Virus record (IMG/VR): IMGVR_UViG_3300017969_000125
Coordinates: 1 to 25,571 of that record
Reading direction: 5' to 3' (one strand)
From: a virus
DNA length: 25,571 nt
How positions within the stretch are numbered: the first letter of the stretch is position 1; each line of letters begins with the position of its first letter. The notes under the pieces are model-generated. The model was given only the letters and a program-made list of their open reading frames with translations, ran no database searches and was not told the origin of the DNA. Positions 11,078 through 24,143 of the stretch are shown one piece after another. The translations under genes and the position numbers were made by a program.

Positions 11078-11833
11078 CTACTCGCCTACTGTACCGCCTT
11101 CCTGATCCTTTGGCAACAGGTTAGGCAAATCCCAGAGTTGACCCTGACGCCAGGCAGAAACATGCTCCTCTCTTTCACTCTGATCGAGAAGTTGAACTCT
11201 CCAACCATAATCCCCGTTAGAAATTACGGTGGGCATCAAGTTCATAGCAACTGTGATGCGATTGGGGTGATTATTAACTTTGAATCCATGAATCATGTGT
11301 GATTCCCACAAGAACAATCTACCCTCTGCACCAGTTACACAATCAAATTGATTGTACCTGGTTTCTTTATGGTATGGAATCTGAAGTGCATTATATTGTG
11401 GATATGACATGCCCAATCTTGGTCTGCCAAAATATGTGTGGGAGTGTTTCTCTGGGTCAAAGTTGACATAATATAAGGCACTAATCACCGAATTAGAATG
11501 AAAATGTGGTGATTGATATCCACCTTCATTGCATATATTGATCCAACTATCTGTGACTTGCATTGTCTCTGGGAGGTAATATCCCATGACATTTGACATA
11601 AAGTCTTCGGCACAGTTTTCTACCCATGTTCTAAACCGTGAAAAACGATCATCTTGAATTACAGAATAGTGATCTATATGGGTCAACGAATGAGATCGTG
11701 GATTTTTTATGATTTCTCCGTCTTGCTGCTCAATTTCTGCCAAAAATAAAGATTTAACTTTATCATGAAATGGACACTCCTGAACATACAAAGGAGATGG
11801 AAGTAAGTCAACTACAGTCATAACTTCAGGCAT
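11078..11833 (-). CDS. Putative 2-oxoglutarate/Fe(II) oxygenase, 251 aa
   Basis: Resembles the phage 2OG-Fe(II) oxygenase family with W-x-N and H-x-H signatures: DSWINICNEGGYQSPHFHSN (W97, N99, H110, H112), the strand SALYYVNFD (118-126), then GRLFLWESHMIHGFKVN with H182 as third iron ligand, and R192 in NRITVAMNLMP as the 2-oxoglutarate anchor. This is close to the pattern of phage proteins annotated as putative prolyl or protein hydroxylases. Substrate unknown. The start may be ATG 11833, which abuts a terminator T-run, or ATG 11821 (MTVVDLLPSPLYVQ), neither with a clear ribosome site. A late-type promoter lies at 11861-11868. Confidence 0.85.
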   Translation of the reverse strand: MPEVMTVVDLLPSPLYVQECPFHDKVKSLFLAEIEQQDGEIIKNPRSHSLTHIDHYSVIQDDRFSRFRTWVENCAEDFMSNVMGYYLPETMQVTDSWINICNEGGYQSPHFHSNSVISALYYVNFDPEKHSHTYFGRPRLGMSYPQYNALQIPYHKETRYNQFDCVTGAEGRLFLWESHMIHGFKVNNHPNRITVAMNLMPTVISNGDYGWRVQLLDQSEREEHVSAWRQGQLWDLPNLLPKDQEGGTVGE

Positions 11834-11869: not shown

Positions 11870-13207
11870 TCACTGGATGGGGTTACGTCCCAGAGACAGA
11901 TTATCTCCCGCTTCCTGTACAGCACAGTTGGCATCATCGGTAGAACCGCCATCAGCGTGGGGTTCAATGTGTCCACCGTGGTATGCGGTAGGGTCAAAGA
12001 GTCGTCCCTTGTCGATGGTCTTACCTTCGGGAGTTACCCAGTTCTGCCTCACTGCAGCACTGAACTTCTGTTCCTTGCTGAAGTTACGCTTGGGGTCCAG
12101 TTGAGTGCAGAACTCTTCAGGATTCCAGGTCTTCGTAACAATCTCACGACGGAGTTTGTTGAAGGAAGACTCACGCGAACGCATGAGTTCCTTATACACT
12201 GCCTCACGACCGTTGTTGTAAGTGTAGGTAGTGGGGTCAGTTAGGTTCATTGCGTGGGTCTTCATGTAACCTTCGATGAAACCATCTCGGTTACTGATGC
12301 TGAAGTTGTTGTCCTTCAGATCCTTCACCAGTGCAAACAAGTCAAGAACACAGTTCTTGTTAGGCAGTGCCTTCAGATCATCACCCATGAAGTTGATGAA
12401 GGACTTGAAGTCCGACTCGAACTTGTGAATGAGTTTGTCCTCAGTGGACCCGTATGCATAAGCACTCCACAGGGACTTGTCGGAGATGGTGGTATTCAGA
12501 CCACCGAAGTACACCAGTGCGAGACCAGCAATGAAGTCGTCAACCTTGCGACGGTTGATGTCTGCCTTGGAGAAGAAGTTCTTCAGTACAGACTCATACT
12601 CGGTGGCAAGATTGCGGATGGTGTTAGAGAAGTCGGAGATGACTGCGTTACGCTTCTCTGGACCATTCAGAGAGATACCGTCATTCATACGAATGAACAG
12701 TTCAGAAAGTTGATCACGAGTCGCAGAAGTAATGATCTCGATGGTAACAACTGCGTTCGAGAATGCCTGCATGATCACATTAGGCAGAGTCTCGAACATG
12801 TCGTTCTCCCCCTCAATGATCTCCACAACTTGACCAGCAATGTCATAGAATCCAGGTTGGATTCCAAACTCTCCGCGAATAAACTCCGCGAGAGTAGTGA
12901 CACGGTTGTTGGAGTCGATGTTGAGGTAATCAACAGCGCGACCTTTCCATCCCTGATAATACTGTTTGTCTGCGGCAACCTTAGAAGTAACCTGGCAGGC
13001 ATCTGTAGATGCCAGGATAAACTTAGAGGGTGCCATTCCCAGGATCACCGAAGTGATGTAGGAACGTTTGTTGTCGTTTGCCCAGCGAACTCGGGACTGG
13101 AAAGAATAGTCCGCACGGGTCTTGGGTTGCATCTCGGCGAGGAAAGACTCCACCGAATACTTGTAAAAGTCCGATTGAATAGGACCGAATGTTGCTTTGT
13201 TTGACAT
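11870..13207 (-). CDS. DUF262 + HNH nuclease-like protein, 445 aa
   Basis: Two-domain protein of the GmrSD/DUF262 type. The N-terminal part has the DUF262 (ParB/sulfiredoxin-like NTPase) pattern: SFQSRVRWANDNKRSYITSV, ILGMAPSKFILAS, then IDSNNRVTTLAEFI (97-110) in the place of the D-G-x-Q-R motif, and LSELFIRMNDGISLNGPEKR (168-186). The C-terminus is an HNH nuclease core: YHGGHIEPHADGGSTDDANC (H413, H417, N427) followed by GDNLSLGRN (N436). In bacteria such proteins cut modified or foreign DNA; in a phage it could act on host or rival phage DNA, or as superinfection exclusion. The D-S-N-N-R form lacks the usual Gly and Gln, so NTPase activity is uncertain. Codons look more GC-rich than in neighbours. 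Operator-like repeats precede the start. Confidence 0.85.
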   Translation of the reverse strand: MSNKATFGPIQSDFYKYSVESFLAEMQPKTRADYSFQSRVRWANDNKRSYITSVILGMAPSKFILASTDACQVTSKVAADKQYYQGWKGRAVDYLNIDSNNRVTTLAEFIRGEFGIQPGFYDIAGQVVEIIEGENDMFETLPNVIMQAFSNAVVTIEIITSATRDQLSELFIRMNDGISLNGPEKRNAVISDFSNTIRNLATEYESVLKNFFSKADINRRKVDDFIAGLALVYFGGLNTTISDKSLWSAYAYGSTEDKLIHKFESDFKSFINFMGDDLKALPNKNCVLDLFALVKDLKDNNFSISNRDGFIEGYMKTHAMNLTDPTTYTYNNGREAVYKELMRSRESSFNKLRREIVTKTWNPEEFCTQLDPKRNFSKEQKFSAAVRQNWVTPEGKTIDKGRLFDPTAYHGGHIEPHADGGSTDDANCAVQEAGDNLSLGRNPIQ

Positions 13208-13519: not shown

Positions 13520-13527
13520 TATTTAGA
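13520..13527 (-). promoter_or_regulatory. Late-type promoter, minus arm of bidirectional site
   Basis: Minus-strand TCTAAATA, 22 bases before ATG 13498. It overlaps the plus-strand site at 13526-13533; together they form TATTTA-GA-TAAATA, an inverted repeat with a two-base centre. Confidence 0.6.
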
Positions 13528-13533
13528 TAAATA
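13526..13533 (+). promoter_or_regulatory. Late-type promoter, plus arm of bidirectional site
   Basis: Plus-strand GATAAATA, 27 bases before ATG 13560 of the glycine-rich gene. It differs from TATAAATA at one position. It is the only plus-strand promoter candidate in front of the only plus-strand gene. Confidence 0.6.
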
Positions 13534-13559: not shown

Positions 13560-14738
13560 ATGTCAGAGTTAAATCAATCAATCTTGAGACAACTCGCAAC
13601 ATCTGCAAAGGATGACATTGTTGCAGTTCCAGAAGAGAATCAGAAGATTGTTTCTGTGACAAATGCTGATAATGGATCGGAAATGGTAGCATCAGATGTG
13701 CCTGGTGAAAGTGTAATGTCAGGTGTTATCGGAAACGGTCAGATCTCAAAGGCAACTGATAATTACTTTGCCAGTGGTTCGATCTACATGAGTCAGTTAA
13801 ACTCTACATTTGGTGGTGGAAATTACTTATCCTCCAAATATAGAGGTGGTAATGTTCCGAACTGTCAATATAACAATAATGTTCCCACTGGTGGACAGAT
13901 TTATTTCAGTAATTTCCGTGGGTCAACTAAAACAATCTATGCATATTGCAATGGAAACTTTGTACATCTCCAGGCAAGATGGGAGATTTATGGAGACACT
14001 GACTGGACTTCTCAGGCAAACAAAAAAATCATCTTTAGTGGTCATGCTGGATCCTATGACACTAATCCTGCACTGAGAATTAACAATAGTGGAGACTTGA
14101 ATGGTGCTCAAGTTGAACTTGTAGGTACAGGTACTCCTAGAATTGTTGGTCGTCCAGGAAATAATGGCGGTGGTGCTGGTAACAGTGGTCTACATATCGC
14201 AAGTGCTATCAAGATTCCCGATAGTATGTGGAATGGTCAATGGGCATCTGTAGGAATCTTTGGTGCTGGAGGTGGCGGAGGAAATGGCGGTAACGGTGGC
14301 AATGGTGGCAACGGTCAACACAGCGGTAGCGTCAGATGTAACGGTTGGTTCTGTAATGGAACAAAGAGAGAATGTAATGGTGATGGTGGTAACGGAGGAA
14401 ATGGTGGTAATGGTGGATCAGGTGGCAGAGGTAGGGGTTACGAATGGAACGGAAGTGTCTGGAATTTAGTATGGCCAGGTGCCTCTGGTGGTAATGGCGG
14501 AAACGGTGGAAATGGCAGAGCAGGAAATGGCGGAAACGGTGGAAATGGCGGCGGTGGAGGTGATCTCCAGAGTTATGGTTCTGGCGGTGGCGGTGGCAAC
14601 AGCGGCAATAGCGGAGGTTATGGTCAGCAAGGTTGCGGCGGTGGTCCTAACGGAGGAAACAGTGGTAATGGAGGCAACGGCGGAGGTCCAGGCGGCGGCA
14701 AAGCAAACTACTCCCACAATGGGTATCGTTATCAGTAA
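13560..14738 (+). CDS. Glycine-rich fibre-tip adhesin-like protein, 392 aa
   Basis: The only plus-strand gene. Residues 1-130 look like a phage structural head: GQISKATDNYFASGSIYMSQ, then PTGGQIYFSNFRGSTKTIYA (109-128), a G-x-I-x-F-S-x-F-x-G motif common in tail-fibre and structural proteins. Residues 130-235 are mostly beta strands. From about 235 the chain is Gly/Asn-rich (GGNGGNGGNGG runs at 240-252, 276-288, 309-331) interrupted by more complex loops with Cys and Trp (RCNGWFCNGTKREC 259-272; YEWNGSVWNLVWPG 294-307). This matches the plan of S16-type gp38 adhesins: polyglycine-II helices in a sandwich, with variable loops that touch the receptor. Likely role: host recognition at the tip of long fibres. 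GGN codons repeat in the DNA. Homology to gp38 is inferred from composition. Confidence 0.75.
   Translation: MSELNQSILRQLATSAKDDIVAVPEENQKIVSVTNADNGSEMVASDVPGESVMSGVIGNGQISKATDNYFASGSIYMSQLNSTFGGGNYLSSKYRGGNVPNCQYNNNVPTGGQIYFSNFRGSTKTIYAYCNGNFVHLQARWEIYGDTDWTSQANKKIIFSGHAGSYDTNPALRINNSGDLNGAQVELVGTGTPRIVGRPGNNGGGAGNSGLHIASAIKIPDSMWNGQWASVGIFGAGGGGGNGGNGGNGGNGQHSGSVRCNGWFCNGTKRECNGDGGNGGNGGNGGSGGRGRGYEWNGSVWNLVWPGASGGNGGNGGNGRAGNGGNGGNGGGGGDLQSYGSGGGGGNSGNSGGYGQQGCGGGPNGGNSGNGGNGGGPGGGKANYSHNGYRYQ
14240..14700 (+). repeat. GGN-codon tandem-like repeats in adhesin gene
   Basis: Imperfect repeats of GGTGGTAATGGC / GGCGGAAACGGT type (Gly-Gly-Asn-Gly units) make up much of this part. The high self-similarity offers many sites for slippage or recombination, which could change repeat number or swap loops. 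Confidence 0.7.
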
Positions 14739-14747
14739 TCCGATTGT

Positions 14748-15833
14748 TTAATGTGGTTCTGGACCATTAAGAGGTCCAACAAATCCATATGCAACGCGCA
14801 TAGAGTTGCCTTCATGTTCCGTAGATACTTGGAAGGTAGCAAATATATTTTCTGTACTGGTACTATTTTCCCAGTTGTTTAATTCTGGTGCCCAACCTTC
14901 GGGCAACCAAGAACAATTTTCTGTTGACTGGGCAATAGATGACAGGGAATCAATATGACATTGTTTGTAATACTGATACTTTGTAAAGTTATCTTGGGCA
15001 GTAGTGCCTGCTGGCGCATCTTTCTTCTTCTTGGGCAACACATTCTGACCAAACTTTTTCTGAACCCCGTTAGAATCAAATGTGATACTTACATTCACAT
15101 AGGTATTCTCATCAATATACAATGAGTCCATCACATCAATGGTATTACTTGTACTCAAATACATCTTAGTTCTCTTACTTCCAGCAACATTTGCGAGCAA
15201 GTCCTTCACTGTCCCGACATTATCATCATTTCTAACTAAGAGAATCTCCACACTATTTTTGAGACGATTGTGAATCAAATAAGTGGGTGACAAATCATAT
15301 GAATCTTTAAGTTCTGGATCGGCAAGATTATCAATACCAGAGAAAATACTTTCCAGTTCGGATGTATTCGGATTGCCTACTAAATCCCCAATCAAATTAC
15401 ACAAGTGTTTAATACTTGCAGGGAACATTGGGAAGATTTCAAAGTCAATATGTTCTTCCACAATTTCGGTGGGATTTGCTGCATCAAATGCAAGAAATCT
15501 GTTACCCATGAAGTAGTTAAAGATGGGGTTTCTATGAATCACATCTTTACCATATGGTTGCCACTCTGTAATACCTGTAGGTGCTTTAAAAAAGAACCCA
15601 TAAAGAGTATCAATATTGACGTTTTTGAGTCCAGAAGTAGGAGACTGAGTGTATTGTCGGACAAAAATACATCCACTATCCCTTCTTTTCGAACCACGTT
15701 CATTCCATGCCTTTGAAAAGAGAGATGGATTGGCATCAACAATCTTTCTGACGTTCTCTACATCAGTTTGAGAAACTAAGTGCGGATAGTCATTCGACTT
15801 GACTAATTTTTCGAGCGATCCAAAATCTACCAT
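14748..15833 (-). CDS. Uncharacterised 361-aa protein in adhesion module
   Basis: Not recognised. The protein is soluble. An N-terminal helical part (GSLEKLVKSNDYPHLVSQTD) is followed by segments with alternating hydrophobic residues (DSGCIFVRQYTQSPTSG, then IDTLYGFFFKAPTGITEWQP), a helical middle (IKHLCNLIGDLVGNPNTSEL), and later beta-like strands (TYVNVSITFDSNGVQKKFGQ). A basic patch PKKKKDAPAG lies at about 266-275. The tail ends FVGPLNGPEPH. It overlaps the 2OG oxygenase upstream by seven bases and is the last gene of the 17160-14748 unit. It ends nine bases from the end of the convergent adhesin gene with no terminator between. It could be a modifying enzyme or a fibre-assembly factor, but nothing in the sequence decides it. 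Confidence 0.8.
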   Translation of the reverse strand: MVDFGSLEKLVKSNDYPHLVSQTDVENVRKIVDANPSLFSKAWNERGSKRRDSGCIFVRQYTQSPTSGLKNVNIDTLYGFFFKAPTGITEWQPYGKDVIHRNPIFNYFMGNRFLAFDAANPTEIVEEHIDFEIFPMFPASIKHLCNLIGDLVGNPNTSELESIFSGIDNLADPELKDSYDLSPTYLIHNRLKNSVEILLVRNDDNVGTVKDLLANVAGSKRTKMYLSTSNTIDVMDSLYIDENTYVNVSITFDSNGVQKKFGQNVLPKKKKDAPAGTTAQDNFTKYQYYKQCHIDSLSSIAQSTENCSWLPEGWAPELNNWENSTSTENIFATFQVSTEHEGNSMRVAYGFVGPLNGPEPH

Positions 15834-16381
15834 TGTTCTCCTTTATCGTAAGCAAACCATACAACGACTGAGTACCTTGTTCCTGATGTAACCTTGGCGA
15901 CCTCATGTGGATAAACCAAAGCACTTGGATAAACATGAATGGAGTTTTTATGTTTATCTAACGTATAGTTTTTCCAGAAGACCATTTCGCCACCTTCATA
16001 GTCATCATTGATTTGAAATGATGCAGTAACTGATGCAGCGTCGGCATCCATATCTGTATGATATGAAAGATATCCTCCTTCTGGGTATTTACATAACCAG
16101 TAACCACTATATTTATCGAAGACATCTCCATCTGGAAGGCACCAACGATAGTCATTCAATATCTTTGGCATCGTTCTTTTGAAGGCAGCATGAACAATGT
16201 CAAATACTTCACCCTCAGTTAAAAGAACCTGTTGCCTATGTCCCTTGAGAGAATAGTTTGCATCCTCTGCAATATCTTCAAAGTCTGGAAACTCAAAGTT
16301 CTTTAATAACTTCAGAAGTCGAAAGTATTCATCAGCATCTAATACATCATGATAATCATGTATATGATCCGAGAGATTCAT
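15827..16381 (-). CDS. 2OG-Fe(II) oxygenase, prolyl 4-hydroxylase-like, 184 aa
   Basis: Clear double-stranded beta-helix dioxygenase. Motifs: GGYLSYHTDMDADAASVTAS contains the H-x-D iron pair (H108, D110), the next strand gives FQINDDYEGGEMVFW (122-136, the usual L-N-x-x-x-Y-x-G-G-E-x-x-F pattern of prolyl 4-hydroxylases), YPSALVYPHEVAKVTSGTRY supplies the distal H159 and R169 binds 2-oxoglutarate. The family hydroxylates proline or other residues in proteins. The N-terminal 95 residues are a helical cap. ATG 16381 shares ATGA with the stop of the upstream oxygenase, so the two are co-translated. The small size is normal for phage members. Confidence 0.9.
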   Translation of the reverse strand: MNLSDHIHDYHDVLDADEYFRLLKLLKNFEFPDFEDIAEDANYSLKGHRQQVLLTEGEVFDIVHAAFKRTMPKILNDYRWCLPDGDVFDKYSGYWLCKYPEGGYLSYHTDMDADAASVTASFQINDDYEGGEMVFWKNYTLDKHKNSIHVYPSALVYPHEVAKVTSGTRYSVVVWFAYDKGEQW

Positions 16382-17160
16382 AAGAAATATTCTTTCGCAA
16401 CGAATCCCGAAACAGAAACTCTAAGTCTATCCTTGAAATCACTAGAAGCAAACTTTGCAGAGTGCCAGAGATATGATGGATAGAGAACTAATCTATTGTA
16501 TTTCATTGGAACTTCATGAATCTCTGTCCACACAGGATCCATACATTTGTAGTCCAAAGGAACCATGTCAGTAGATTGTTCCAGGAAATCATATTCCCAT
16601 TCTTTGTAATTCCAGTAAGGTTCTTCTCTTTTGAATTTCACAAATACATGTTCCATGTTTATGCAACCAGCAGTTTTATGAGAATAAAATGCTGTACCAC
16701 CTGCATAATTATCACCTTCTCCAGTATCAACTTCCTTGTTCATGTAGAGAACAAACGCAAACATGGCAGGATCAACGTGAGGTTGAATCAGTGCCTTTGG
16801 AAATTGTAGACTACTATCAATGGCATTTACCTGAAATGCATACCTAAGATTCTCTGGATCAGGTATCTCGAAATCGGTAAATTTATCAATGAAATATCCT
16901 ATTGCATTTCTAACTTCAGGCAACATCATGAAGATTTGCCCCGTATATCCTGGGATAGAACTACCACCAGCATCAAACTGTTCCCTATTCTTTTCAAGAG
17001 GAACTTTATTTACAATATTCTCCAAGAAATAATCAGGATCTTCCAGAAAATTATCTACAACAATAACTGGATGATTTTGATCTTTTCCGATTCTTACGGA
17101 AACATATTGCATGTCATTGCTAATTTTAATCTCACCAGTATCAATCAAATTCAAAGACAT
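16378..17160 (-). CDS. Putative 2OG oxygenase (DUF6445-like), 260 aa
   Basis: Resembles DUF6445-type proteins, a branch of the 2OG-Fe(II) oxygenase fold. Visible: HPVIVVDNFLEDPDYFLENI (30-49), SSIPGYTGQIFMM (67-79), IQPHVDPAMFAFVLYMN with the H-x-D pair (H128, D130), GGTAFYSHKTAG (154-165), and NRLVLYPSYLWHSAKFASS with H233, then R245/R247 in KDRLRVSVSGF as 2-oxoglutarate anchor. Substrate unknown. ATG 17160 has AGAGGAT immediately upstream; an extension to 17208 would run into the preceding gene. A late-type motif AATAAATA lies 19 bases upstream. Next gene shares ATGA. Confidence 0.8.
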   Translation of the reverse strand: MSLNLIDTGEIKISNDMQYVSVRIGKDQNHPVIVVDNFLEDPDYFLENIVNKVPLEKNREQFDAGGSSIPGYTGQIFMMLPEVRNAIGYFIDKFTDFEIPDPENLRYAFQVNAIDSSLQFPKALIQPHVDPAMFAFVLYMNKEVDTGEGDNYAGGTAFYSHKTAGCINMEHVFVKFKREEPYWNYKEWEYDFLEQSTDMVPLDYKCMDPVWTEIHEVPMKYNRLVLYPSYLWHSAKFASSDFKDRLRVSVSGFVAKEYFL

Positions 17161-17178
17161 AATATCCTCTTTTTTTGT

Positions 17179-17186
17179 ATTTATTC
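17179..17186 (-). promoter_or_regulatory. Late-type promoter (AATAAATA)
   Basis: Minus-strand AATAAATA overlaps the stop codon of 17181-17363 and lies 19 bases before ATG 17160. It shares the TAAATA core with the other late sites and may give separate expression of the oxygenase genes. Confidence 0.4.
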
Positions 17187-17363: not shown

Positions 17364-20300
17364 TTACTTATCCTTGAGTTTTTCTTCCAGATCAGAAACT
17401 TTGGCGGAGAGTTCCTTCACTGCCTCGATCAAGAGTGCGGTGAGTTTCTCATACTTAACTGCCTTGTATCCATCCTTTCTGGTGGTAACAAGTCCAGGTA
17501 ATCCGAGTGCCTCAATCTCTTGTGCGATGACGCCAGTATCTTCGCCAACGTGTCCAGTTTCATGTTCTTCGTTGTTCCACTCGAAGGTGTTACCACTGAT
17601 CGAGAGAATCTTATCAAGAGCATTGGGGATAGGAGCGATGTTATCCTTCAGTCTTTCGTCGGAAGAATAGAAGGCAACAATATCACCCGTAGCAGCAATC
17701 TGGTTGACGTTTGCGTTGAACAGGAATCCCTGGTCACGATACAGTTGTCTATAACCAAGACCATCATTCTCGGGAACTTTGGTCATTACTGGGTAGAACC
17801 ATCCACCGTTCTGAGTATCAACGATCTCAACATCATTTGCCTGAGCAGCAGTACCACTGAAAGTACCACCAGCACTGAATGTGCCGTTAACGGTCAAGTT
17901 GTTGAGAGTTGTTGAACCACTGACTCCCAAATTACCACTGATAGATCCAGAGGAGAAGGATCCAGAACCGCCATTAAATGCATTTGCAGTAATAACGTTT
18001 GCAGAGAAACTACCAGTATTATCTCTACTTACAATAGACAATCCAGTCTGATTTGTGGATGAAGTATTCATATCATCCAACAAGTCTGCGTTTAAGTTAA
18101 CGCACTTGGTTGTAGAAGATGTAATGATAGGTGGAGTACCTTGAGATGCAGTATGTACAAACTGGAAGGCGTTAATCTTACCAGTAGGTCCACACTGAAT
18201 TGTCATATTGACGCCAGTATCACCCAGGGCGGTAATAATACCAGAGTTGACATAAAGTTTAGGCGAAGTCAGAGAACCACCGTTACCAGTGTTCAGGAAT
18301 GTAAGCGTAGAGTAAGTACCAACCAGAGAGGTAACAACACCAGAGTTAGCAACAATCTCAAGAGAAGGTTGTCCCTGACCCTGTTGACCAGGACCCATGA
18401 TTACACTGGATCTAACTGCTGTAATGATACCACTGTTAATGAAGGCAGTAGGACCAAACAGTTGGTCAGTGAAGTTAAGATCAGTCGCTGTCATTGCGAC
18501 ACCGATGATGTTATCGTAACTCAGGTTTGTACCACTCATATTAGTGGCAATACCGTTTGCAATGTATGCCTGTGGAGTGGTCAGATTGTTGGAGGCATAC
18601 AGGTTAGTGACAATACCCGAGTAGATATTTGCCTCATTTGTGTACGATGTGCTGCTGTAGAAGTCGGTAATAATACCGAGGTTCGCATACAGACCATTAG
18701 TTACAGAGGCAACCTCAGAATACAGATCGGTAACAATACCCGATGGCGTAGAGAAATTCTTGCGTACCGCAAGAGTATCAATACCAGCATTGATAGCAGT
18801 CAACGTGGTTACATTGATTGTACCACCATCACACTCGATATTACCAACATCAAGTGTACCAACGAATGTACTTACACCAGCGTAAGTATCATTGATTGGA
18901 CCTTCAATGCTGATGTGAGAAGCAGGTTTGAAGGAAACATAAGTACCGACAGTTTCTACATCAAAGAGTCTAGATACACCGCCTTCATCTACAATACTGT
19001 AGTAACCATAGTTCTCCCAGGGAATACCTTGAGGAGAAATGCCTCCAGTAGTGTTGTAACCCCAGAAGTTGGCAATCTTTCTAACAATGATGCTATCGTA
19101 TGTAACACCAGTAAATGTCTGTGGAGATGCAAAGGTAACAATACCAGAAACATACAGGTGATTAACTTTAACCGTACCATTAACCTCAAGGGCATCAGTG
19201 AAGTTAAATTGACCAACACCCGACTGACCAATACCAAGTTGATCAATCTTGAAGAACTGTCTATCTCTCTCTTGAGAGACAACACCCATTCTTCTCCACT
19301 CACCTTCAGCATAGATGTGTCCAATATAACCACCAGTATTGGGGTTAGTGATAAGAGAAATATCACCAGATCTCTTTGCAGTTAATGGAGTTGAGATACC
19401 TACGGTCAGTTCTTTACCCTGAGGGGCAGTACCTTTCAGGAAGAGGTTTCTAGTTTCAATACCATCAATGGAACTGTTAGTCAACTTCTCGGTCATGTTG
19501 ACAGGACCGTAGAACTGAGAAGTTCTATTGTTGTTATCACCACCCTCAACAGTGATGCCTTCTCTTACCAGAATCTCGTCAAATACACCAGAAACTTTCT
19601 TAGTTGCCTCAGACTCTGCATCATCACCAGTGTAGGTGAAGATAGGAGCACCGATGACCTCTTCCTCACCAGTAATTGCAGACAGTTTGTTGTAACCAGT
19701 GAAGAATTCACCAGCGTCGTTCATACCAGTATAAACGACTTTACCACCATTTGCCTCTTTCTTCTGGGCGGCGAGTTGTTCATCAGAACTCAGAACTCTA
19801 TCCTGTTTTTGTGGCAGAGATGTAGAGTAGTTACCAGAACCATAACCAAGATATTCAAATGTATGACCAGAGGCACGAAGAATAGAAGGTCTACGAAGTT
19901 CCATTGGAACAATTTCGATCTTCTTAATCGTTGCGCCAGAGATAGCAGCACTCGCAACAGTACCAAACTGACCACGAATAACCGAGTTAACGTTATCGTT
20001 GGTGAATCTGACAATCTCTGCGTTAATTAAACAATAATCTCCCTTGCGGAAACCAGCAGTGTTGGTAAGAGTAATTGTAGAGTCAGTTGCTGTCATTGGA
20101 GCAGCAAGAGTTGTGCTGATACCTGTGTAGAAGGTTGCCGCTCTTGCACCCAGATTGTTCTCACCCAGACCAAGAGATCTTGCTCTCGCTCTCATGCCAT
20201 GACCAAACAGTCTGGCATCAGTAATACTATAAGCAGTGACGATTCCAGCAGTGTGTACACCGACGTTAAAGTGAATATCCGTCAGTGGTGTATTCTGATC

Positions 20301-23300
20301 AACATCAACGACAACGAATGGTCTTTCATCAAAGAAGGAATTGCCTGTTCCAACAATAGTAAATGTTTGTCCAGCAACCAGAGTATGATTGTTAGTACAT
20401 CTAACAGTTGCAACACCAGTTGCACCAGTCATTTCAATAGAAGTAATACCTACACCAGGGTTGGCGAGAGAGTATTGTGGGAGTCTTCTATCAGTTCTAG
20501 TTTCATAGTAAGGAGAAACAATATTAGGTTTATCAATCTCAATAGAAACAGATCTAGAAGTAGGAATATCAACGATCTTATGAGTTCCATTATACAATGG
20601 ATCTACGAAACCAGAGAGATCCAAACCATCGCCAACGTTGTCGAAGACAGAAACAACTTCAACAACAGCAGGAGATGTTGCAGCACCTGCTGGGAATGGA
20701 TCAATGGTCATGGTGTTACCTACACCATAAGCACAACCACCATCAATAATCTTGACACTAGAAACAGTACCAGCAGCAGAGATCTGAACTTCTGCTGCAG
20801 CACCTCTACCAATCAAGGCATTATTAACGAAGTCTGCGGCATAAATGACAGTTGCAATACCTGTGCTGTTGTTGTATCCAGCACCACCATCAATGATATT
20901 AACTTCTTTGATGGAATTGAACTTGTGTTCTACTTCACTATAGAGAGTAATAGTAGTGTTACCTGTACCAGAAACAACAGCACCAGTTACAGCAGTACCA
21001 ACATTGAATCCCTGCATAAAGTAGTTGAGGGATTCTCTTGTGAGAGACTTCTTCTTGTCGTTAGAAATAACCTTACCGATGACGGAAGGTTGTGCAAACG
21101 ATACAGAAGGTTCTGGATCAGAGTTGTAATTATCTCTATCTTGCTGTGGATAGAGGTTTCTAACGTCTTGAGAGAATGACTTGAAGGAAACACCGAAACC
21201 AAGATCTTTATCAAGAGGGATAGAACCACAGACAAGAATGAGGTTGTAGATACCATCTTGTCCAGATGTTCCAGGAATATGTGGTTTTACTTCTTGAACA
21301 CGATAGACATAGAGACTATCCTTAGACTTAGATCTTTGAACAGTAGGCAGTGCCTCAATCTGTGCCTGTGTTGTTCTCTGGTTGATCTGGTTCTTAAATG
21401 CACCAGGATCAGTTGTAATACCAGCAATAGTGAACTGTTTTCTACTCAGAATACTCGTAACTGGATTCTCACCATTGAAACCAACATTGTAGGTTCCGTC
21501 TGGGTTGTTGACAGAATCAATATTTCTAAGAGTTACTAAGTCATCAACAGCAAGTTTGTGATCCTTTTCTGTCGTAATGGTAATAATATCATTTGCCCAT
21601 GTAGCATTCTTGACGATCTTAACGTTTCTAAGTTGTGTTGGGTTAGTTAAGTCTGCACTCAGATAAGAGGCAGATGTAATACCAACTGTCTTAGATTCTT
21701 GAAGAACGAAACCAGGAGTAGGTGGACGTGCATCAACGTGTTCCTTAGGAATAACGTATCTTGCTCTATAAAGTCTATCTTGCAGAGATCTGTTATCTAC
21801 TCTTCTTTCCAGGTATGTGGATCCTGATTCTTCACCAATCTGACCAACTCCAAGACTATAGAGTGCTGGATAAATGGTGTTGGAAACAGAACTTGGGTCA
21901 ACAGTAATATACCAGTTATTGTTTACACTATCAAATTGAATTGGGTGTCCGAGTTGTCCAGGTTCTTTATCGGAAACCGTAGAAATGATCTTAAGTTTAC
22001 CGCCTCCATTAGAGAGACCAGTTAAAGGTCTACGGGAGAGAGCATCGTTCAGAGTTGCGGCAAGTTGAATTCTATTTGCAGCAAGAGAACCACCAGTAAT
22101 GGCATAGTAAATCTTATCATTGATAATGCCATTTGGTGTCTCACCAGTGTCAGAAAAGACTCTAACTTTCTCACCAGTGAGTAACTGATGGTTTTCAATC
22201 AGAGTAAAGACGTTAGAAACAATAAAGTTGACGCCCGCATTGCGAACAACATTGTATACCTTACGATACGAAGTTGTGATACCAGAGGCACCAGACTGCA
22301 TCAAGATTGGTGCAGAATATACATTAGGAACGGCAGCACCAGTAGTGGTATCTACCAGAGCAAGTTTCAGAGTATCACCTGCTCTTGCACCAACTCGATA
22401 AGAGTCAACCTGAGAAGGTGGAACAACTTCCTGAGTATCATATCCATAGAGATAAAGTCTACCAGTATCAGCAATACCAATAGTCTTCTGAACATCCAGA
22501 GTCAACCAAGAGATTGTGGTGTCTTCTGCTGTAAGTTCTCTAGGTGGAATGATGTGAGTAACATAACCAACATCGTCTCTATCAAAGGAGAATGGTCTGA
22601 ATCCACTAGACTCAAGAGCAGTTTGACCGAAGTTGGAGTTAGAGTTGGTAATAGAGGCGTCACCACCTCTTTCTGCCTGGAAGTGTCTTGCGAACGCAAT
22701 AGCAAACACCGAAACGATCTGAACAACAGCGTTGTTCCTCACTCTCATGTGAGAGGTTTCGTATGTTGGTTTGTAAATGGCACTGGAGTTACTGTGAAGA
22801 GGTCTCTCAGCATCAGCAACAGAAGTATCATCATTAAAGATTGCAGTGTCTGGGTTATACAGAATGAATGCATTATCATCCTTCTGAATAGAGATACCCG
22901 TGAACTGTGCAACAACCATCGACTTGAATCCAGTCGCCTTGTCGCCATCACAATCCATGCCGTTCAGACCATAAACCGAACGGAGAGAACAGTTAAAGAT
23001 ATATGGAGATGCAGATCCTACAGTGTCAGGTTCAATAATAACAGAGGAGTTCTGAATCTCTTGGGGAATTGGCAGAGGGTTGCCAGGAACAAGAGGAGAA
23101 ATATATCTAAACTCAGTATCACTTAAGACTTCATCAACAACGAAAGAACCGTTATATGCATTGATGGATGTAGTAATACCAGCAATAAGAACGGGAGTCT
23201 CTTTGAAAAGATTGTGTGGTTTGTTTGTGGTTACAGTAATCTGTGTAGAAGCAGTATTGCCATCACCAGACTTAATAGAACTGATGCCAACTGGGTCAGC

Positions 23301-24143
23301 AGCAAGGTCACCAACAATTCTAAATTCGTCGATGTTGGGTTCGAAGTCATCAAACGTTGGGAAGTCTCCAACAGGTCTACCAGAAGCATCACCATATGCT
23401 CTAGCAACCTTATAGTAGAACATATCGAGGTCGGTCAGTTGAGAATCCGTACCGTCGATAATGACATTATTTACACCGTCTGCATACTGGAAGCAAGACA
23501 GTTTGTGGTGAGAGAATGTTGGTTTCTTAGTGTTACTGTCGAAGTCATAATATGCAACTTTAGCAAGATCGGCATCAAACAGAGAGAATGCCGTGAAGTA
23601 ACAAGTACCAGTAACTCTAAAGATCGAAGTGTATGTGAACCTATCGTCTTCAGGATCAGGAACATACAGAGGACGAATCTTGGTTTTACGGAGATCCAGA
23701 CCAATGATAGACGTACCACGAGGCAGGATTACGCCACCTTCAGTAGAGTTGTACTTGTAAAGATCGTTGTTTCTGTCAAGTACGTCAAAGTTGGTTTCTG
23801 TTGTAAACTCATTCAGAGTTACTTCAACGAAACCATTATTTCTTCTTGCCTTAAACTGGGCAGTACCACTGTTATCTACAACAGTATATCCAGGTCTATT
23901 ATCAATATAGTGCGTTCCTGGGAACGTCAGAATCGTTGTTCTGTCGATCTTATCGTTATTTTTTCCTGTCTGGTACGAAAATCTTGCCGCCTCGATCAGT
24001 GCCCTTTGAATTGTCTTAAAAGGACGAGTCAGAGAATTACCTCTGTTCTCAATACTGTCTGTAGCATCAAAGTCGGAAGGGTTTACATATAAAATATTAC
24101 CTTCAGCGTTCTTGAGGAAATTCTCTAGTCTTGAAAGAGGCAT
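17364..24143 (-). CDS. Giant tail fibre/virion protein with S74 self-cleaving chaperone, 2259 aa
   Basis: Very large beta-rich structural protein. The N-terminus (LYVNPSDFDATDSIENRG, then RPFKTIQRALIEAARFSYQT at about 40-60) has the pattern of pectin-lyase-like beta-helix fibres of cyanophages. The middle is a long array of beta repeats rich in Gly, Thr, Val and Ile. At about 1770-1990 a repeated S-G-I-V/I-T motif recurs (PSGIVTDLYSE, YSGIVTNLYAS, NSGIITAVRSS, NSGVVTSLVG), a beta-helical repeat. The last 100 residues are a peptidase S74 intramolecular chaperone: YSSDERLKDNIAPIPNALDK, where the Ser before D2162 and K2166 match the Ser-Lys dyad, then TGVIAQEIEALGLPGLV and a terminal coiled coil. 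Cleavage before the serine would release the last ~99 residues after trimerisation. Probably a long side fibre touching the host. A late-type promoter lies 30 bases upstream. Confidence 0.93.
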   Translation of the reverse strand: MPLSRLENFLKNAEGNILYVNPSDFDATDSIENRGNSLTRPFKTIQRALIEAARFSYQTGKNNDKIDRTTILTFPGTHYIDNRPGYTVVDNSGTAQFKARRNNGFVEVTLNEFTTETNFDVLDRNNDLYKYNSTEGGVILPRGTSIIGLDLRKTKIRPLYVPDPEDDRFTYTSIFRVTGTCYFTAFSLFDADLAKVAYYDFDSNTKKPTFSHHKLSCFQYADGVNNVIIDGTDSQLTDLDMFYYKVARAYGDASGRPVGDFPTFDDFEPNIDEFRIVGDLAADPVGISSIKSGDGNTASTQITVTTNKPHNLFKETPVLIAGITTSINAYNGSFVVDEVLSDTEFRYISPLVPGNPLPIPQEIQNSSVIIEPDTVGSASPYIFNCSLRSVYGLNGMDCDGDKATGFKSMVVAQFTGISIQKDDNAFILYNPDTAIFNDDTSVADAERPLHSNSSAIYKPTYETSHMRVRNNAVVQIVSVFAIAFARHFQAERGGDASITNSNSNFGQTALESSGFRPFSFDRDDVGYVTHIIPPRELTAEDTTISWLTLDVQKTIGIADTGRLYLYGYDTQEVVPPSQVDSYRVGARAGDTLKLALVDTTTGAAVPNVYSAPILMQSGASGITTSYRKVYNVVRNAGVNFIVSNVFTLIENHQLLTGEKVRVFSDTGETPNGIINDKIYYAITGGSLAANRIQLAATLNDALSRRPLTGLSNGGGKLKIISTVSDKEPGQLGHPIQFDSVNNNWYITVDPSSVSNTIYPALYSLGVGQIGEESGSTYLERRVDNRSLQDRLYRARYVIPKEHVDARPPTPGFVLQESKTVGITSASYLSADLTNPTQLRNVKIVKNATWANDIITITTEKDHKLAVDDLVTLRNIDSVNNPDGTYNVGFNGENPVTSILSRKQFTIAGITTDPGAFKNQINQRTTQAQIEALPTVQRSKSKDSLYVYRVQEVKPHIPGTSGQDGIYNLILVCGSIPLDKDLGFGVSFKSFSQDVRNLYPQQDRDNYNSDPEPSVSFAQPSVIGKVISNDKKKSLTRESLNYFMQGFNVGTAVTGAVVSGTGNTTITLYSEVEHKFNSIKEVNIIDGGAGYNNSTGIATVIYAADFVNNALIGRGAAAEVQISAAGTVSSVKIIDGGCAYGVGNTMTIDPFPAGAATSPAVVEVVSVFDNVGDGLDLSGFVDPLYNGTHKIVDIPTSRSVSIEIDKPNIVSPYYETRTDRRLPQYSLANPGVGITSIEMTGATGVATVRCTNNHTLVAGQTFTIVGTGNSFFDERPFVVVDVDQNTPLTDIHFNVGVHTAGIVTAYSITDARLFGHGMRARARSLGLGENNLGARAATFYTGISTTLAAPMTATDSTITLTNTAGFRKGDYCLINAEIVRFTNDNVNSVIRGQFGTVASAAISGATIKKIEIVPMELRRPSILRASGHTFEYLGYGSGNYSTSLPQKQDRVLSSDEQLAAQKKEANGGKVVYTGMNDAGEFFTGYNKLSAITGEEEVIGAPIFTYTGDDAESEATKKVSGVFDEILVREGITVEGGDNNNRTSQFYGPVNMTEKLTNSSIDGIETRNLFLKGTAPQGKELTVGISTPLTAKRSGDISLITNPNTGGYIGHIYAEGEWRRMGVVSQERDRQFFKIDQLGIGQSGVGQFNFTDALEVNGTVKVNHLYVSGIVTFASPQTFTGVTYDSIIVRKIANFWGYNTTGGISPQGIPWENYGYYSIVDEGGVSRLFDVETVGTYVSFKPASHISIEGPINDTYAGVSTFVGTLDVGNIECDGGTINVTTLTAINAGIDTLAVRKNFSTPSGIVTDLYSEVASVTNGLYANLGIITDFYSSTSYTNEANIYSGIVTNLYASNNLTTPQAYIANGIATNMSGTNLSYDNIIGVAMTATDLNFTDQLFGPTAFINSGIITAVRSSVIMGPGQQGQGQPSLEIVANSGVVTSLVGTYSTLTFLNTGNGGSLTSPKLYVNSGIITALGDTGVNMTIQCGPTGKINAFQFVHTASQGTPPIITSSTTKCVNLNADLLDDMNTSSTNQTGLSIVSRDNTGSFSANVITANAFNGGSGSFSSGSISGNLGVSGSTTLNNLTVNGTFSAGGTFSGTAAQANDVEIVDTQNGGWFYPVMTKVPENDGLGYRQLYRDQGFLFNANVNQIAATGDIVAFYSSDERLKDNIAPIPNALDKILSISGNTFEWNNEEHETGHVGEDTGVIAQEIEALGLPGLVTTRKDGYKAVKYEKLTALLIEAVKELSAKVSDLEEKLKDK

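What the first reader, a model, noticed from the sequence alone, without database searches (positions are those of the whole stretch)
13560..14738. Glycine/asparagine-rich adhesin-like protein with Cys-Trp loops on the opposite strand
The plan (structural N-terminus, then GGN-rich stretches broken by loops with Cys, Trp and Tyr) resembles S16-type gp38 adhesins, in which polyglycine-II helices carry variable receptor-binding loops. The repeated GGN codons give an easy way to gain or lose repeats. It may decide host range.
Basis: partly seen in the sequence, partly recalled or inferred. Interest (0 to 1): 0.7.

Follow-up and report, generated by a model that had tools for sequence, protein, structure and literature searches.

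The report
Cyanophage gp38-like tail-fibre-tip adhesin
A marine cyanophage-type virus carries a glycine-lattice protein that very probably caps its tail fibre and touches the host, like the gp38 adhesins of gut-bacteria phages; its cysteine loop is fixed rather than variable, and the gene next door folds like an enzyme that attaches prenyl groups to aromatic molecules.

Summary
The ORF at 13560-14738 (+) is a real gene, with homologs in Synechococcus phages S-SSM7 and Sf-FS3 and on about 80 marine virus contigs. They lie nearly always in the same slot, opposite to the neighbouring genes, behind a T4-type late promoter 23-29 nt from the start codon. The AlphaFold model matches the solved S16 and PP01 gp38 adhesins (Z 14.2 and 13.5), and a profile comparison with gp38 sequences agrees (93.7%). 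The gp38 reading is therefore well supported for fold. Its docking-like domain recurs as the N-terminus of proteins encoded directly behind S74-type fibres in other phages, which suggests that it caps the S74 fibre at 17364-24143. Virion location and host range were not testable. Unexpectedly, the convergent neighbour (14748-15833, -), found with this adhesin in nearly every contig, is predicted to fold as an ABBA aromatic prenyltransferase, beside two 2-oxoglutarate oxygenase-type genes. Modification of the adhesin by this cassette is an open, low-probability but testable idea.

The parts
13560..14738 (+). Gly-rich gp38-like adhesin gene (392 aa), opposite in orientation to its neighbours
   Evidence: homologs; AlphaFold pLDDT 80.4, pTM 0.68; gp38 fold match
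13526..13533 (+). late promoter GATAAATA; the only (N)ATAAATA on the + strand of the window
   Evidence: an ATAAATA lies 23-29 nt before the ATG in 62 of 66 distinct homologs; NATAAATA is the reported cyanomyovirus late promoter (PMC2984593)
13560..13730 (+). short N-terminal extension (residues 1-57, low confidence); replaced by a ~190-230 aa module in most homologs
13761..13922 (+). docking-like domain, residues 68-121 (SGSI..SQL / SSKYRGG / TGGQIYFSNFRG)
   Evidence: in more distant phages it begins at residue 4-5 of the protein encoded directly behind S74-type fibres; docking role inferred
13923..14261 (+). beta-helix-like core, residues 122-234
   Evidence: profile match to gp38 73-160 versus 153-243, 93.7%, E 2e-7; VIA alignment 123-392 to PP01 gp38
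14262..14735 (+). polyglycine-type lattice of GGX helices, residues 235-392
14319..14384 (+). conserved Cys loop, residues 254-275 (..RCNGWFCNGTKREC..)
   Evidence: C260, C265, C272 in 61 of 61 (pattern-selected) and in every homolog complete over this stretch when retrieved by the core domain alone
14433..14489 (+). aromatic loop, residues 292-310; Y294, W296, W301 aromatic in 61 of 61, tip 302-309 variable
14634..14636 (+). fourth invariant Cys (C359)
   Evidence: not part of the search pattern; 61 of 61
14748..15833 (-). N361, convergent neighbour with stop codons touching; predicted ABBA/PT-barrel (aromatic prenyltransferase) fold
15827..16381 (-). 2OG-Fe(II) oxygenase (PF13640), HxD..H..R residues present
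16378..17160 (-). DUF6445 protein (2OG-oxygenase-like; HxD..H..R present), likely start at 17160
17178..17185 (-). late promoter AATAAATA, 17 nt before the DUF6445 ATG
17364..24143 (-). 2259-aa tail fibre, presumed carrier of the adhesin; S74 chaperone at about 17487-17663

Best explanation
The gene encodes a gp38-type adhesin that caps the tip of the phage's long tail fibre. Residues 68-121 dock on the end of the fibre encoded at 17364-24143, probably after its S74 chaperone has been released. Residues 122-234 form a short beta-helix, and 235-392 form a lattice of polyglycine-II helices that holds loops towards the host surface. It is transcribed late from its own promoter. One loop, with three invariant cysteines and an aromatic core, is probably tied to the loop carrying C359 and acts as a fixed structural or common-receptor element; specificity is more likely set by the other, variable loops. 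Shown by computation: gene reality, synteny, promoter motif, gp38-like predicted fold, conserved Cys/aromatic pattern and fixed lattice. Inferred: virion location, docking on this fibre, Cys bonding, receptor binding and host-range role.
For: AlphaFold model from 59 sequences, Gly region mostly with pLDDT above 80. VIA: S16 gp38 Z 14.2 over model 69-392, PP01 gp38 Z 13.5 with rmsd 2.7 over 177 residues, next unrelated row Z 3.4; Foldseek E 1.2e-4; several viral models named Gp38. Profile comparison with seven gp38s of Straboviridae, 93.7%, E 2e-7. Docking-like domain: in at least ten more distant contigs, plus two Stenotrophomonas phages, it begins a protein whose gene starts within about 17 nt of the end of an upstream fibre gene; S74 passed Pfam's cut-off in all nine fibres scanned, the window's included. 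Late promoter motif at fixed spacing. Fibre, oxygenase and adhesin genes keep the same order in nearly all contigs.
Against: The gene is not directly behind the fibre gene and is inverted, unlike gp38 and the S74-linked relatives. Residues 68-121 lack the three Trp of gp38's attachment domain, and the global profile alignment over that region was not convincing. I found no virion proteomics for these phages: the set reported by Sullivan 2010 was from S-SM1. The model is AlphaFold only and no complex was predicted.
Confidence: 0.75

Rival explanations
1. The adhesin is post-translationally modified by the adjacent cassette: the PT-barrel protein N361 prenylates Trp/Tyr of its conserved loops, and the 2OG oxygenases hydroxylate it or the fibre, giving a greasy or hydroxylated tip that helps adsorption to the outer membrane.
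For: N361 model pLDDT 88.5, pTM 0.88; all 46 Foldseek PDB hits with E below 1e-3 and the best 50 VIA entries (Z up to 14.7 over residues 1-361) are aromatic prenyltransferases; five alpha-alpha-beta-beta units with ten strands; conserved Lys/Tyr/Glu in strands and one conserved face (30 of 2000 shuffles reach it). N361 accompanies the adhesin in nearly all contigs, stays in the same contig when a metabolic gene is inserted between, and 35 of 35 N361 loci found separately are on adhesin contigs. Aromatic residues 294, 296, 301 are aromatic in 61 of 61.
Against: No sequence match to any prenyltransferase; fold does not show activity; the conserved aromatics may be structural; the link could be shared ancestry of one syntenic block; the substrate could be the fibre, a small molecule or something else. 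Related oxygenase-type genes occur in cyanophages without this adhesin beside them.
Confidence: 0.15
2. N361 is a non-catalytic PT-barrel protein that serves as an assembly chaperone or attachment partner of the adhesin or fibre.
For: Near-strict co-occurrence and the convergent, stop-touching arrangement; tail fibres often need dedicated chaperones (established knowledge).
Against: Conserved strand Lys/Tyr/Glu residues look more like a ligand site than a surface; I know of no chaperone with this fold.
Confidence: 0.25
3. The protein is a virion or fibre decoration with a structural role only, and does not contact the receptor.
For: Most conserved loop is invariant in Cys; lattice fixed.
Against: gp38 fold match and faster amino-acid change than the neighbours, mostly in loops.
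Confidence: 0.12

Closest known systems
gp38 receptor-recognising adhesin of Salmonella phage S16 (PDB 6F45) and E. coli phage PP01 (PDB 9V85)
   Same: Predicted beta-helix plus polyglycine lattice with protruding loops; structural Z 14.2 and 13.5; profile-level sequence match over the beta-helix core
   Different: Gene inverted and four genes away from the fibre gene instead of directly behind gp37; extra N-terminal extension; docking region without the three Trp; long GGX stretches; invariant four-Cys pattern; loops less variable in length
Proteins encoded directly behind S74-type tail fibres in other phages (L155-L176 set, Stenotrophomonas phages ANB28 and BUCTxx99)
   Same: Same docking-like domain (SGxIxxSxL..YYRGG..VPTSGxIxxSxF), many with Gly-rich C-terminal parts
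   Different: There the domain is at the very N-terminus and the gene follows the fibre gene in the same direction; C-terminal parts are diverse and lack the Cys loop
SSSM7_033 of Synechococcus phage S-SSM7 and SfFS3_30 of phage Sf-FS3 (both annotated hypothetical)
   Same: Orthologs by position: same slot, orientation, promoter motif, Cys loop and neighbours
   Different: Longer N-terminal module (526 and 561 aa, against 392)
ABBA aromatic prenyltransferases (TleC, FamD1, AmbP1, CloQ, FgaPT2), for the neighbour N361
   Same: Predicted fold and strand/helix order
   Different: No detectable sequence similarity; activity untested; phage-encoded next to an adhesin

Membership tests
gp38-type (S16/T2) tail fibre adhesin | polyglycine-II sandwich on a beta-helix | tested here: met
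   predicted model only: Z 14.2 to 6f45_D, Z 13.5 and rmsd 2.7 over 177 residues to 9v85_A
gp38-type (S16/T2) tail fibre adhesin | sequence homology to gp38s | tested here: met
   profile-profile 93.7%, E 2e-7 over 85 columns of the beta-helix core; a trimmed version gave 63.5%; no Pfam family matched
gp38-type (S16/T2) tail fibre adhesin | N-terminal attachment domain with three conserved Trp that insert into gp37 (PMC6851490) | tested here: not met
   residues 60-121 contain no Trp; a docking-like domain of other sequence lies there
gp38-type (S16/T2) tail fibre adhesin | gene directly downstream of the distal fibre gene | tested here: not met
   inverted and separated by N361, the oxygenase, DUF6445 and a 60-aa ORF; S16 order
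gp38-type (S16/T2) tail fibre adhesin | hypervariable distal loops tied to host range | tested here: inconclusive
   some loops vary, the Cys loop is conserved, length variation is half that of gp38s; host ranges not available
gp38-type (S16/T2) tail fibre adhesin | located at the fibre tip and binds the receptor | not testable with these tools
   needs virion proteomics, EM and binding tests
ABBA/PT-barrel aromatic prenyltransferase (neighbour N361) | PT-barrel fold, five alpha-alpha-beta-beta units | tested here: met
   predicted model only:
ABBA/PT-barrel aromatic prenyltransferase (neighbour N361) | sequence match to a known prenyltransferase family | tested here: inconclusive
   none found in Pfam or PDB sequences; sequence identity in the structural matches is 5-12%
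ABBA/PT-barrel aromatic prenyltransferase (neighbour N361) | conserved basic/Tyr diphosphate site inside the barrel | tested here: inconclusive
ABBA/PT-barrel aromatic prenyltransferase (neighbour N361) | prenyl transfer activity | not testable with these tools
   needs an enzyme assay

The most novel reading that the evidence does not exclude
A phage-encoded cassette of a PT-barrel prenyltransferase and two 2-oxoglutarate oxygenases modifies the aromatic loops of the fibre-tip adhesin (or the fibre itself), so that the virus carries a prenylated, hydroxylated receptor-binding tip.
Probability: 0.13. Interest if true: 0.88.

Novelty: new variant of a known kind. Interest (0 to 1): 0.6.

Why it matters
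Receptor-binding proteins of marine cyanophages are poorly known, although these viruses infect abundant photosynthesisers. The report names a whole gp38-like adhesin family, now annotated hypothetical in S-SSM7 and Sf-FS3, says which loops are fixed and which vary, and gives a docking-like domain by which fibre-tip proteins behind S74 fibres can be recognised in other phages. If the PT-barrel neighbour acts on the adhesin, it would be an unfamiliar way for a virus to tune its grip on the host.

Tried and rejected
Pfam found nothing for the adhesin and PHROGs only families of unknown function. Sequence search of the PDB gave only low-complexity Gly matches. A profile search with alignment A3 was swamped by Gly patterns. 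N361 relatives were not found among genome contigs by the patterns used, and alignment A5 could not be used for retrieval. Invertible-segment idea: the longest flanking inverted repeat is 7 bp and all homologs keep one orientation, so rejected. Repeat expansion and contraction of GGN: rejected. Global gp38 alignment including the docking region: not convincing. The first Cys survey used a pattern that contains three of the Cys; I therefore repeated retrieval with the core domain alone, and all members complete over that stretch still carried the loop; L099, L133 and L144 end before it. Foldseek-based lists cannot exclude other folds. Literature searches for phage prenyltransferases returned nothing on the subject among the titles and abstract openings shown; the papers were not read, and the library is not complete.

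Full report
1. The observation. The ORF 13560-14738 (+) encodes 392 aa with the described plan. Its neighbours are all on the minus strand. It is a real gene: a 94% identical copy lies on another contig (L006), the other frames are full of stops, and dN/dS against L006 is 0.48 overall and 0.64 in the Gly domain, against 0.16 for N361 and 0.03 for the 184-aa oxygenase gene. Homologs are annotated hypothetical in Synechococcus phages S-SSM7 (isolated on WH8109) and Sf-FS3 (isolated on WH8102), and a DNA pattern built on the Cys loop found 82 virus stretches, nearly all of them members. The window is a virus record of 25571 bases; a cyanophage host is inferred from the relatives, not shown.

2. 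Context. In nearly every contig with enough sequence the order is the same: small coiled-coil gene, then the adhesin in the opposite direction, then N361, a 2OG-Fe(II) oxygenase, DUF6445 and the S74 tail fibre on the other strand. The adhesin has its own late promoter motif: ATAAATA lies 23-29 nt before the ATG in 62 of 66 distinct homologs (shuffled expectation about 6%), three others have CTAAATA, and in the window it is the only such motif on the + strand. NATAAATA is the reported late promoter of cyanomyoviruses (PMC2984593). A second one lies 17 nt before the likely DUF6445 start. No inverted repeat suggests a switch.

3. What it is. AlphaFold with 59 sequences gave pLDDT 80.4 and pTM 0.68; residues 1-6 and 24-57 are low. 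VIA aligned it to S16 gp38 (6f45_D, Z 14.2, 211 residues, rmsd 6.6) and PP01 gp38 (9v85_A, Z 13.5, 177 residues, rmsd 2.7); the next row is Z 3.4. Foldseek agrees and viral models called Gp38 are among the top matches. A profile of seven gp38s matches the beta-helix core with 93.7% probability, E 2e-7; a trimmed version gave 63.5%.

4. Docking-like domain. When relatives are sought with residues 68-190 only, after the true family come phages in which this domain starts at residue 4-5 of a protein encoded directly behind a fibre gene (L155-L160, L163, L165-L167, L170, L171, L173, L174, L176). S74 was confirmed by Pfam in all nine fibres scanned, the window's own and L005 included. That is the evidence that this region joins the fibre tip; the step to this particular fibre is inferred. 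In the window's clade the gene has left that place, is inverted, and carries an N-terminal extension of about 57 aa (window, L006, L070) or about 190-230 aa (most others).

5. Loops and lattice. In 61 distinct complete homologs C260, C265, C272 and C359 are invariant; 263 is W in 44 and Y in 5; 294, 296 and 301 are always aromatic. C359 was not part of the search pattern. In the independent retrieval every member complete over that stretch has the Cys loop; three contigs (L099, L133, L144) end before it. G237 to C260 is 23 residues in 61 of 61, glycine columns have full occupancy, and length changes sit in a few loops. Indel fraction at similar identity is 0.040, against 0.077 in gp38s. X in GGX is Asn in the window but N, G, Q, A, T, S or K in the family. 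Between window and L006 the Gly-domain changes fall mostly in loops (T268Q, N297S, V300N, A321S, Y339N, S341A). Whether the four Cys form disulfides or hold a metal is not known.

6. The neighbour. N361 (14748-15833, -) converges on the adhesin with stop codons touching in most contigs. It was found next to the adhesin in about 61 contigs; in L036 and L053 it lies further along the same contig, with a metabolic gene between, and in L064 and L067 it was not found in contigs of 16.6 and 5.3 kb. All 35 loci found with an N361 alignment are on adhesin contigs, and the four phage records with N361 are S-SSM7 (two records), S-SSM6a and Sf-FS3, which also have the adhesin. Its model (pLDDT 88.5, pTM 0.88) matches aromatic ABBA prenyltransferases and nothing else among the best 50 (Z up to 14.7), with alpha-alpha-beta-beta units and ten strands. 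Conserved Lys and Tyr residues sit in the strands. There is no sequence match to such enzymes. Fold is not activity. The two adjacent oxygenase-type genes keep the HxD..H..R residues, but related genes occur in cyanophages without this adhesin beside them, so the cassette idea is kept at low probability.

7. Verdict. A gp38-like fibre-tip adhesin of marine cyanophage-type viruses, a new variant of a known kind: same predicted fold, different docking sequence, gene position and loop conservation. Virion location, fibre docking, receptor binding, host range and any modification are inferences that need the experiments listed.

Noticed in passing
14748-15833 (-): N361, a conserved convergent neighbour of unknown family, is predicted to have an ABBA/PT-barrel aromatic prenyltransferase fold and was found only together with this adhesin.
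   Followed up: partly
L036, L053, L064, downstream of the adhesin: A gene that by its sequence looks like 6-phosphogluconate dehydrogenase (L036, L064) or glucose-6-phosphate dehydrogenase (L053) follows the adhesin; in L036 and L053 N361 lies beyond it, so this spot seems to accept metabolic genes.
   Followed up: partly
15827-17160 and 11078-11833 (-): Two 2OG-Fe(II) oxygenases and a DUF6445 protein lie in the conserved block around the adhesin and fibre; an HxD..H..R set is present in the 184-aa oxygenase and in DUF6445 but not obvious in the 251-aa one.
   Followed up: partly
L155-L176, L096, L097, L004, L005: The docking-like domain is widespread at the N-terminus of diverse proteins encoded directly behind tail fibres; in L096 and L097 the upstream fibre ends near the motif that precedes S74 elsewhere, as if the mature end were encoded directly.
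   Followed up: partly
L067:2267-3856 (-): An adhesin homolog in an odd setting: no late promoter motif, Gly-rich sequence just upstream of its start, no N361 nearby on a 5.3 kb contig; possibly a rearranged or chimeric contig.
   Followed up: no
11870-13207 (-): 445-aa protein with a weak GmrSD_N match and an HNH-like C-terminus, in the same slot as genes annotated HNH endonuclease in S-SSM7 and Sf-FS3.
   Followed up: no
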